DNA of 64,000 nucleotides from Streptomyces armeniacus (GTDB taxonomy: Bacteria > Actinomycetota > Actinomycetes > Streptomycetales > Streptomycetaceae). The stretch spans positions 7,788,528-7,852,527 of the forward strand of contig NZ_CP031320.1 in NCBI RefSeq assembly GCF_003355155.1, written 5' to 3'. The notes below the pieces were generated by a model. That model did not search any database, was not told the DNA's origin, and saw only the letters and a program-made list of their open reading frames with translations. Below, piece after piece: positions 15,198-64,000 of the stretch. Each line of letters opens with the position of its first letter. The first letter of the stretch is position 1. Made by a program: the position numbers and the translations under genes.

Positions 15198-16130
15198 ATG
15201 AAGACCAAGACGAAGACCGTGCTCCTCGTCGGCACCGCGACCGCCCTGCTCGCCACCTTCAACCTCGCCCCCCAGGCCACGGCCGAACGCACCGGCGACA
15301 AACCGCGTCCGGCCGCCGCCCCGCAGCAGAACGGCTTCGAGCGGCCGGCCGCGGGCAACCCGTACACGGTCTCCGAATGGGCCGCGGACGGCTGGGACCT
15401 CGCCGACGGGCCGGGAGGCGGCACGCCGCAGGGCTGGGACACCCGTACGAGCATCGACGGCGAAACGCCCGCGCACAGCGGCGCCAAGTCGCTGCGCGTC
15501 TTCTACCCGGAGGGGCAGATAGGCCCGGAGAACTCCGGGGCCCTCGCGCCGTTCCGCGTGCCCGAGTCGCGTGAGTACTACCTGTCGTTCTGGGTAAAGT
15601 TCAGCGACGACTTCAGCTGGGGCACCACACAGTTCGCGGGCAAGGTCGGGATCGGGCTGTCCGGCGGCGGCGCCTGCTCCGGCGGGGAGCAGTGCGACGG
15701 CACCAACGGCTTCAGCTCCCGCCCGATCTGGACCAAGAGCAGCGGCACGGCGGCCGTCTACTACTACAGCATGGAGCACGAGGGCGAGTACGGCGACCAC
15801 GTGGTTCTGCGGAAGGACGGCGCCGACATCCAGTGGCCGAAGGGCGAGTGGGTCAACGTCGTCCAGCGGCTGAAGGTCAACACCGTCACCGACGGGCAGG
15901 CGAACCCCGACGGCGAACTCGAGATCTTCTACAATGGCGAGTCCGCCGCCGAGAAGACCGGCCTGCGCTTCGTCACCAACGACGACCAGATCGACAAGGC
16001 GCACTTCTCCAGCTTCGCGGGCGGCGGCACCCCCGAGTTCGCCCCTGCCGACGACGGATACATCTGGTACGACGACGTCAAGGTCTCGACCGACAGGGCG
16101 GACATCTGCGAGCTGAGCAGCTGTTCCTGA
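15198..16130 (+). CDS. Secreted polysaccharide lyase, family 14-like
   Basis: A 310-residue secreted protein. The ATG at 15198 has GAAAGAGGAACG before it and opens a signal peptide ending near TAERTGD. The mature part resembles the jelly-roll of PL14 alginate/glucuronan lyases: KSLRVFYPEG, EYYLSFWVKFSDDFSWG, QFAGKVGIGLSGG, CDGTNGFSSRPIW, YYYSMEHEGEYGD, WVNVVQRLKVNT, DGYIWYDDVKVS. Such enzymes cut uronic-acid polymers by beta-elimination outside the cell. It follows the DapA-like gene by 52 bp on the same strand, so joint expression is likely. The family call rests on recalled motif order; alginate versus glucuronan cannot be decided. Confidence 0.78.
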   Translation: MKTKTKTVLLVGTATALLATFNLAPQATAERTGDKPRPAAAPQQNGFERPAAGNPYTVSEWAADGWDLADGPGGGTPQGWDTRTSIDGETPAHSGAKSLRVFYPEGQIGPENSGALAPFRVPESREYYLSFWVKFSDDFSWGTTQFAGKVGIGLSGGGACSGGEQCDGTNGFSSRPIWTKSSGTAAVYYYSMEHEGEYGDHVVLRKDGADIQWPKGEWVNVVQRLKVNTVTDGQANPDGELEIFYNGESAAEKTGLRFVTNDDQIDKAHFSSFAGGGTPEFAPADDGYIWYDDVKVSTDRADICELSSCS

Positions 16131-16212: not shown

Positions 16213-16285
16213 GCCGCACCCGCACCCGCACCCGCACCCGCACCCGCACCCTCACCCGCACCCGTATCCGCACCCGCACCCGCAC
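16213..16285. repeat. CCCGCA hexamer tandem array
   Basis: About eleven copies of CCCGCA or close variants follow the lyase gene and end just before the adapter run. I see no coding function. It may be a genuine simple repeat that broke the assembly. Confidence 0.8.
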
Positions 16286-16302: not shown

Positions 16303-16368
16303 CAGTCTCTGATATACATCTCCGAGCACACGAGACGGACTCCAATGTCGCATGCCGTCCAAGTCTAG
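16303..16368 (+). other. Nextera i7 adapter sequence (artefact)
   Basis: 16303-16321 matches CTGTCTCTTATACACATCT at 16 of 19 bases. 16322-16336 matches CCGAGCCCACGAGAC at 14 of 15. 16337-16344 reads GGACTCCA, one base from the Nextera N705 index GGACTCCT. 16345-16359 matches ATCTCGTATGCCGTC with two differences. An A-rich low-quality tail follows to about 16423. This is read-through into sequencing adapter, not genome. Confidence 0.95.
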
Positions 16369-16423
16369 ACAAACACAATAAAGCATATACGTACAGTACA
16401 CCCACTCACTTTACCAATCTTCA

Positions 16424-16519
16424 CGCCACTACATCGCCAACCCCGACCTCGTCACCCGCCTCGCCCTCGGCCGTGAACTGGCACCGGGCGACCCGAACAC
16501 GTACTACACGGGCGGCGCC
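16424..16519 (+). pseudogene. Inverted C-terminal fragment of the old yellow enzyme gene
   Basis: Codons 16424-16519 read RHYIANPDLVTRL, then ALGRELAPGDPNTYYTGGA, the typical C-terminal FMN-phosphate and tail region of NADH:flavin oxidoreductases. The rest of the same gene lies on the opposite strand immediately to the right. The join is at a GGCGCC palindrome (16514-16519), and about 50 internal residues are missing. It is an inverted chimeric junction. Confidence 0.85.
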
Positions 16520-17464
16520 GGGCGCGGTCGGGGCGGGGCCGCGGAGGTGGAGGTACGAGGGCGGGTGGTTGTTCAGCTCCGTCACCAACTCGTCGTACGC
16601 GGCGAGGGTTTCGTCGTCGGCCGTGTACGGATAGGTGGCACGCGTACGGGCGTCGGCGGTGAAGACGTCGTCCGCCGTCCAGTACGGCGACAGGCGTATG
16701 CCGACGCACTGCCCGTCCCACGGTTCGGCGACCGCGTCGACGACCTCGAGCAGCAGCCGTTCGCGGCGGGTGCCGTACGCGTCCGTTCGGTGGTTCAGCC
16801 GCGGGTTGAGGAACTGCGGGAGCAGCATCGATCCGTTGGCGGCGACCTCGACGCCGTCGAAGCCCGCGCGGCGGGCGTTGCGCGCGGCGGCACCGTATTC
16901 CGCGACCGTGGCGGCGATGTCCGCTGCGGTCAACTCGCGCGGAGTGACCGTCCGCTGGAAGCCGCCTCCGGTGAACACCCTCTCGCCGGGGTTCACGGGG
17001 GAGGGGCCGGCGGGTGGGGCGCCGTGGTGGTGGTCGGGGTGGGAGTTGGCGCCGGCGTGCCAGAGCTGGAGGACGATGCGGCCGCCGAGGGCGTGGACGA
17101 GGTCGGTGACACGGCGCCATGCGGTGACCTGGCGGTCGGTGTGGATGCCGGGGACGTGGGGGAAGCCGACGGCTCGCGGGCTGGTCCAGGTGCCTTCGGT
17201 GACGATGAGTCCGGCGGTGGCGCGCTGGGCGTAGTAGGCGGCGTGGAGGGCGGTGGGCGCGAGGTGCGGGTTGGTGGCGCGGGCACGGGTGATGGGCGCC
17301 ATGACCACGCGGTTGGGCAGCCGGAGGCCGCCGAGCTCGTACGGCCGCAGCAGGGCGGCCGTACGTGCGCCGGGTGCCGCCGGTGCGGACTGCGCGCTCT
17401 CTGCGTCCTGTGCGTCGTTGTCAGCACCCTGTGCGTCCGGTGCCGTTGTACGGGTGGTGGTCAT
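16514..17464 (-). CDS. NADH:flavin oxidoreductase (old yellow enzyme), 3' lost
   Basis: FMN-dependent ene-reductase reducing activated C=C bonds, cytoplasmic. The ATG at 17464 has GAGGAG upstream. The barrel begins after a 30-residue Ala/Asp-rich leader: LRLPNRVVMAPITRARA, LIVTEGTWTSP, QLWHAGANSHPDH (the H-A-x-N/H substrate-binding region), FDGVEVAANGSMLLPQFLNP, NHRTDAYG and the FMN-binding GIRLSPY. In-frame sequence ends at the GGCGCC join, and the C terminus is found inverted at 16424-16519. The full gene in the organism is probably intact. Confidence 0.88.
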
Positions 17465-29776: not shown

Positions 29777-29800
29777 CCGTCAGGTGGGTATAAGAGACCG
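29777..29800 (-). other. Nextera mosaic end (artefact)
   Basis: 29777-29800 matches the last 24 bases of the Nextera read-1 adapter (GCGTC followed by mosaic end AGATGTGTATAAGAGACAG) at 20 of 24 positions. It separates the ABC fragment from the tRNA block. Confidence 0.9.
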
Positions 29801-35856: not shown

Positions 35857-35946
35857 CTGGCCCTTATACACCTCTGACGCGGCCGGAGGGGGCGTAGGAG
35901 TCGCTGTGGGGTGGTGCGGTCTCACTGAAAAGAAAAGACCCAACGA
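35857..35946 (+). other. Nextera i5 adapter sequence (artefact)
   Basis: 35857-35889 aligns without gaps to CTGTCTCTTATACACATCT plus GACGCTGCCGACGA. 35890-35897 (GGGCGTAG) is two bases from the reverse complement of Nextera index S508 (AGGCTTAG). 35898-35926 follows the P5 end GTGTAGATCTCGGTGG onward with errors. An A-rich tail (GAAAAGAAAAGA) comes next. Most errors are substitutions to G. Confidence 0.92.
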
Positions 35947-47494: not shown

Positions 47495-47689
47495 GCCGTC
47501 CCCCTCCCCCACCGCGCACGCCTTCCCGACGCGCCTTCACCCGTTGCCACGGTCCGTCTCCTCACCCCGCTCCACGGCGCGATGCGCCGCCCCGTCTGAG
47601 ATGAGCCTGCTAGACATGCCAGCCCCCCGGAATGGGGTTCACCACCTGACTCCTCTACCCCTCTCACCACCCCCACGAAGGCCTAGGTG

Positions 47690-47814
47690 GAGATTTGGGT
47701 GGTGCTCGGCACAGTAACAAAAACAGCTAGACACAGCAGTTTCGTCAGTGTTGTGTCTTGCTCAATGTCTCGCGTACCCGCGATGCGGGGGGGGGGGGGG
47801 GGGGGGGGGGGGGG
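47690..47814. other. Junk contig end with 28-base poly-G (artefact)
   Basis: 47787-47814 is unbroken G. The 100 bases to its left are AT-richer, carry no coding signal, and read like a degraded adapter or read tail. Poly-G is what two-colour Illumina chemistry calls when there is no signal. Confidence 0.75.
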
Positions 47815-47833
47815 AGAGGTGTATAAGGGACAG
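47815..47833 (-). other. Nextera mosaic end (artefact)
   Basis: AGAGGTGTATAAGGGACAG matches the 19-base mosaic end with two differences, and cuts the adjacent glycosyltransferase gene. Confidence 0.93.
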
Positions 47834-63859: not shown

Positions 63860-64000
63860 AGATGTGTATAAGAGACGTGGGCGAGTGAACGGGCCTACGA
63901 GCTACGGGCTGCAGCCGCCGCCGGGCGCGTTGGCGGATGTGGCGACCTGGGTCGGCTCGTACGGGCTCGCGTTCTGCTTTTGCGGGTTTTTTTTTTTTTT
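63860..64000. other. Nextera mosaic end, unplaced sequence and poly-T contig end (artefact)
   Basis: 63860-63876 equals the first 17 bases of the mosaic end AGATGTGTATAAGAGACAG exactly. The following 110 bases are GC-rich but unrelated to the PucR gene. Near the end, CTCGTACGGGCTCGCGTTCT followed by GCTT resembles the P7 adapter CTCGTATGCCGTCTTCTGCT, and the window closes with at least 13 T. Confidence 0.9.

What the first reader, a model, noticed from the sequence alone, without database searches (positions are those of the whole stretch)
16303..16423. Full Nextera i7 adapter, with readable index, embedded between two genes
Mosaic end, i7 adapter and the flow-cell end align in the correct order with few errors, followed by an A-rich tail. 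The index octamer GGACTCCA is one base from N705 (GGACTCCT). The lyase cluster to the left and the oxidoreductase to the right were joined through adapter, so their adjacency is false.
Basis: partly seen in the sequence, partly recalled or inferred. Interest (0 to 1): 0.7.

Follow-up and report, generated by a model that had tools for sequence, protein, structure and literature searches.

The report
Sequencing adapter at false contig join
The odd stretch is leftover Illumina Nextera adapter at a spot where two unrelated pieces of a Streptomyces draft genome were stuck together; the one-piece genome it lies in looks like draft contigs strung together from longest to shortest, so gene neighbours across such joins are not real.

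Summary
Window 16303-16368 is a Nextera i7 read-through (mosaic end, linker, index GGACTCCA, P7 end): 50 of 57 bases match up to 16359, against at most 34 for 500 shuffled adapters. A 55-base A-rich tail of 36% GC follows. The index fits N705, as other i7 remnants of this genome do; i5 remnants fit S508. The adjacency is false on both sides. The PL14 lyase on the left is followed by a GH20 gene in 5 of 5 relatives examined; here that gene lies about 145 kb away. The oxidoreductase on the right lacks its C-terminus, which lies 2.4 Mb away, and an inverted 98-base copy of part of it sits at the join. The fault is genome-wide: 92 mosaic-end remnants, none exact, against 0 for the reversed pattern, and their spacing shrinks along the sequence (Spearman -0.88). 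The '1-contig' genome therefore looks like contigs concatenated longest first. A second one-contig Streptomyces genome shows the same signature. This is an assembly artefact, not biology, but it matters to users of such records.

The parts
16303..16321 (+). Tn5/Nextera 19-base mosaic end, 3 mismatches
   Evidence: 16/19; 100 shuffles of the window gave no match
16322..16336 (+). Nextera i7-side linker, 1 mismatch
   Evidence: 14/15
16337..16344 (+). i7 index GGACTCCA, one base from N705 GGACTCCT
   Evidence: 7/8; N705 favoured by other remnants; N705 = GGACTCCT in passages of PMC7589761
16345..16368 (+). P7 flow-cell end, decaying (16/24)
16369..16423 (+). A-rich, 36% GC run-off tail past the end of the library molecule
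   Evidence: composition; origin inferred
16424..16521 (+). 98-base copy, 100% identical, of C1:5388145-5388242; part of the oxidoreductase C-terminus in inverted orientation (fold-back chimera at the contig end)
16522..17464 (-). N-terminal ~310 residues of an OYE-family oxidoreductase (PF00724), cut by the join; the called ORF runs on to 16421 in foreign sequence
15198..16130 (+). PL14-like polysaccharide lyase gene (PF21294), last gene of the left contig
   Evidence: colinear left neighbourhood in relatives
16215..16285 (+). GCACCC-type simple repeat just before the adapter, possibly why the left contig ended here
   Evidence: read by eye; role inferred

Best explanation
This is a false contig join marked by adapter read-through. 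A Nextera library molecule shorter than the read was sequenced through its genomic insert into the i7 adapter and off its end, which gives genome, mosaic end, linker, index, P7 and junk tail. Adapter copies with enough errors survived trimming and any later masking, and such reads formed the outer ends of contigs. Contig ends also carry short patches copied from elsewhere in the genome, here a 98-base inverted piece. The contigs were then strung together, apparently longest first, into one 8.08 Mb sequence, so the lyase contig and the oxidoreductase contig became neighbours. Shown: adapter, index, displaced neighbours, genome-wide repetition, shrinking spacing. Inferred: how the adapters escaped trimming, and that the stringing was by length.
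For: Adapter match 50/57 vs at most 34 for 500 shuffled adapters. 92 mosaic-end matches with up to 3 mismatches in the genome, 0 for the reversed pattern. 53 merged full-adapter hits of score 19 or more in the last 800 kb; reversed adapters reach at most 18. Common indices close to N705 and S508. Where two ends of a cluster are seen, 10 of 10 are '+' then '-', converging, 49-195 bases apart, as expected of contig end + contig start. In the six multi-contig relatives listed place by place, 39 of 39 '-' sites start within 112 bases of a contig start. Left flank: GH20 follows the lyase in 5 of 5 relatives examined but is at C1:7656743-7658500 here, about 370 bases from another adapter. Right flank: N and C parts of the oxidoreductase are contiguous in 6 of 6 relatives examined but 2.4 Mb apart here. 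Cluster spacing falls along the sequence, Spearman -0.876; the lowest of 10,000 uniform placements is -0.406.
Against: No reads were available. The relatives are 62-79% identical in these proteins, so a real rearrangement in this strain is not formally excluded. The right side of this join shows no second adapter. In one search a few '-' sites of other genomes lie far inside contigs (e.g. in G153, G192, G337), so the site alone does not prove a contig end. Spacing is measured only where a remnant is detectable, so contig lengths are not known, and the fall is not strictly monotonic.
Confidence: 0.97

Rival explanations
1. Gap-filling artefact: the two contigs are truly adjacent (scaffolded correctly), and only the sequence placed in the gap is adapter.
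For: Converging adapters at joins would also arise if a gap filler extended both edges with untrimmed reads.
Against: The likely true neighbours of both flanks lie elsewhere: GH20 about 145 kb away, the oxidoreductase C-terminus 2.4 Mb away. Spacing that shrinks along the genome is not expected of correctly ordered scaffolds.
Confidence: 0.02
2. Real transposon scar or laboratory Tn5 insertion: the mosaic end belongs to a DNA element in the strain.
For: The mosaic end is a Tn5 transposase end (recalled).
Against: It is followed by linker, index and P7 end, which belong to library oligos. The same is seen at dozens of places with different errors. In the 10 two-ended clusters only 49-195 bases separate the two ends, too few for a transposon body; no transposase search was made.
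Confidence: 0.005
3. Real rearrangement: the strain moved the lyase and split the oxidoreductase, and the adapter fell at that breakpoint by chance.
For: Both flanking genes are sparse in the genus: oxidoreductase in 15 of 392 genomes and lyase in 11 of 392, own included, at E <= 1e-100, so their surroundings may be mobile.
Against: Needs chance adapters at breakpoints, also beside the displaced GH20, and the same at about 80 places.
Confidence: 0.005

Closest known systems
Adapter read-through contamination of Nextera short-read assemblies
   Same: Mosaic end, linker, index and flow-cell end in order; remnants at contig starts in other drafts of the order.
   Different: Usually at contig ends; here buried inside one 8.08 Mb sequence, with some adapter stretches reading N.
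Concatenated draft ('pseudo-chromosome') held as a single sequence
   Same: Neighbouring contigs unrelated; adapter pairs converge at joins; spacing shrinks along the sequence.
   Different: At this join, and at the others that I read, no fixed spacer marks the seam, so it can pass for real sequence.

Membership tests
Nextera i7 adapter read-through | 19-base mosaic end followed by i7 linker | tested here: met
   16/19 and 14/15
Nextera i7 adapter read-through | 8-base index of the kit at the right place | tested here: met
   GGACTCCA, 7/8 to N705; other remnants nearest to N705
Nextera i7 adapter read-through | P7 end then poly-A or junk run-off | tested here: met
   16/24 with decay, then a 42% A, 36% GC tail
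False contig join | True neighbours of each flank lie elsewhere in the same genome | tested here: met
   left; right; judged from relatives, not reads
False contig join | No read pairs span the join | not testable with these tools
   no reads held
Longest-first concatenation of contigs | Distance between joins falls along the sequence | tested here: met
   Spearman -0.876 over 82 clusters; lowest of 10,000 nulls -0.406
Longest-first concatenation of contigs | Every contig no longer than the one before | tested here: inconclusive
   spacings are not strictly monotonic; joins without a detectable remnant are missed
Tn5-type transposon insertion | Mosaic ends bound a transposon body and no library oligo sequence follows | tested here: not met
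   linker, index and P7 follow the mosaic end

The most novel reading that the evidence does not exclude
Some one-contig Streptomyces genomes rated complete are in fact Nextera draft contigs concatenated longest first, with adapters left in or reading N. Two of the genomes held here (G000 and G012) appear to be of this kind, so their gene order, cluster boundaries and chromosome-arm positions carry little information beyond single contigs.
Probability: 0.88. Interest if true: 0.35.

Novelty: not a real feature. Interest (0 to 1): 0.2.

Why it matters
There is no new biology. It is of practical use: a synteny, gene-cluster boundary, operon or chromosome-end claim that crosses one of these joins is unsafe, and a contig count of one with 100% completeness hides it. 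The test used here (mosaic-end scan with up to 3 mismatches, converging order, spacing trend) is a quick check for other single-contig records.

Tried and rejected

A single index call from this site was thought too weak (one mismatch), so indices were pooled. Only remnants of score 22 or more whose 8 index columns all aligned were counted; rows with N in the index were dropped; some rows are one remnant seen in two overlapping tiles. In the i5 rows the fifth index base is a tie (T 29, C 29 of 67).

Two-colour chemistry was considered from a 28-G run at 47787-47814 and from the error spectrum (of 218 changes in 92 mosaic ends, T>C 80, A>C 44, T>G 41). Suggestive, not pursued.

The Tn5 scar, gap-fill and true-rearrangement readings were rejected for the reasons under rivals. 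Paper searches on adapter contamination were seen as listings only; none of those papers was read.

In one search the query for the oxidoreductase C part was cut in the wrong frame and gave no hit, with the right frame, is the one used. In one search the two genes right of the oxidoreductase (YdjC-like, TPR/NB-ARC) found no match in any of the 11 relative regions, so the right contig's further gene order was not tested.

Full report
Observation. Read ungapped against mosaic end + i7 linker + N705 + P7 end (letters recalled), window 16303-16368 matches 53 of 66 bases, and 50 of 57 up to 16359. The next best place in the window reaches 34, and the best place for any of 500 shuffled adapters is 34. 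The tail 16369-16423 is 42% A and 36% GC in a window of 73% GC. The stated coordinates are right. The index reads GGACTCCA.

Index. Remnants whose index could be read were taken from the last 800 kb, L001-L025 and L114-L131. The i7 rows average 1.7 differences from N705 and 5.1 from the next kit index; there are 10 rows, 8 distinct by eye. The 67 i5 rows, some repeated, average 2.57 from the complement of S508 and 4.85 from the next. The kit list is recalled; N705 = GGACTCCT and S508 = CTAAGCCT were seen in passages of PMC7589761. Mosaic end and i7 linker occur together in 50 papers of the library (listing only). One library with indices N705 and S508 explains the remnants, this one included.

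Left flank. The last left gene, 15198-16130, is a PL14-like lyase (PF21294). The genes to its left are colinear with relatives: in 4 of 5 fetched regions from about 10 kb on, in L135 from about 13.7 kb. In 5 of 5 fetched relatives (of 10 other genomes with the lyase) the lyase match is followed on the same strand, within about 160 bases, by a gene of about 600 residues (ORFs), which has a GH20 domain in L133. In this genome the close copy (82%) lies at C1:7656743-7658500; the only other match is a 34% partial one. It is about 145 kb before the lyase, in the orientation expected of the next gene. About 370 bases before it stands another mosaic end with poly-A, near 7656373 (by eye). The stretch between includes a patch 96% identical to C1:284653-284920.

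Right flank. The oxidoreductase on the right (PF00724) matches relatives over its N-terminal ~310 residues. In 6 of 6 fetched relatives (of 14 other genomes) the N part and the C part are contiguous on one strand. Here the C part is at about C1:5388010-5388291 (start uncertain by some 20 bases), 2.4 Mb away. Bases 16424-16521 are a 98-base identical copy of C1:5388145-5388242, inverted with respect to the rest of the gene. So the contig end itself holds a fold-back chimera, and the called ORF 16421-17464 ends in foreign sequence. Ahead of the C part at 5.388 Mb the sequence is again a patchwork: 97% to C1:5076747-5076991 and 99% to C1:1752149-1752281. Patches copied from elsewhere are thus seen at 3 of 3 places examined for them.

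Genome-wide. The genome is one sequence of 8,083,249 bases. It holds 92 mosaic-end matches with up to 3 mismatches, and none for the reversed pattern. None is exact, 2 have one mismatch, 54 two and 36 three. In the last 800 kb a scan with full i5 and i7 adapters gives 53 merged hits of score 19 or more; reversed adapters reach at most 18. Some adapters are interrupted by N. Of the 9 N runs in the last 800 kb 4 are 47 long, the others 26, 59, 1328, 3033 and 4334. Linker + index + P7 is 15 + 8 + 24 = 47 bases, so I infer that recognisable i7 copies were masked, by whom is not known (depositor, archive or the operators of this tool), and that eroded ones such as this stayed readable. This would also fit the excess of i5 remnants. 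In 10 of 10 clusters with two ends seen, the order is '+' then '-', converging.

Order of contigs. The 92 sites form 82 clusters (sites within 500 bases). Their spacing falls from hundreds of kilobases near the start to a few kilobases near the end: Spearman -0.876, while 10,000 uniform placements of the same number go no lower than -0.406. This is what concatenation of contigs in order of length gives. It is not strictly monotonic, as expected if many joins have no detectable remnant. The window, 7.79-7.85 Mb, lies in the short-contig part.

Relatives and spread. Of 41 genomes (own included) 12 hold the mosaic end, and of 392 Streptomyces genomes (own included) 66 do; the reversed control gives 0 to 2 per genome there, so single matches mean little. 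Read by eye, 9 of the 392 have 30 or more. In the six multi-contig relatives listed place by place, 39 of 39 '-' sites start within 112 bases of a contig start, as for untrimmed contig ends; one search has a few '-' sites far inside contigs. One other one-contig genome, G012 (contig count), has 162 matches. Its 92 sites with up to 2 mismatches (of 100 listed; the 8 listed with three were dropped) form 87 clusters with Spearman -0.74, and it too has N runs in adapters. So the case is not unique.

Verdict. The finding is right in observation and in interpretation, and it understates the problem: the whole record looks like a string of contigs. Nothing at this site is a biological feature. Not shown: the reads, the strain's name, and the exact way the adapters escaped trimming.

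Noticed in passing
window 47646-47833: Another join: a degraded i5 adapter with index AGGCCTAG, junk, a run of 28 G (47787-47814) and a converging mosaic end; the G run suggests two-colour sequencing.
   Followed up: partly
window 35857-35935: Mosaic end followed by a degraded i5 adapter, another join inside the window.
   Followed up: partly
window 29782-29800 (-) and 63860-63878 (-): Two further mosaic ends (3 and 2 mismatches) set directly against other sequence without readable linker.
   Followed up: no
window 63987-64000 and C1:7852528: The window ends in a run of 14 T followed at once by 47 N in the record, the length of linker + index + P7: probably a masked i7 adapter.
   Followed up: partly
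G012 (another one-contig Streptomyces genome, 9.0 Mb), loci L154-L159: 162 mosaic-end remnants, N runs in adapters and falling spacing: probably the same kind of concatenated record.
   Followed up: partly
C1:5387644-5388019 (L048 1000-1375) and C1:7656470-7656738: Contig ends made of patches 96-99% identical to distant parts of the same genome, probably chimeric read ends.
   Followed up: partly
G000 mosaic-end remnants: Errors are strongly directed (T>C 80, A>C 44, T>G 41 of 218 changes), and only 2 of 92 remnants have fewer than 2 mismatches, as if a trimmer with small tolerance removed the rest.
   Followed up: no
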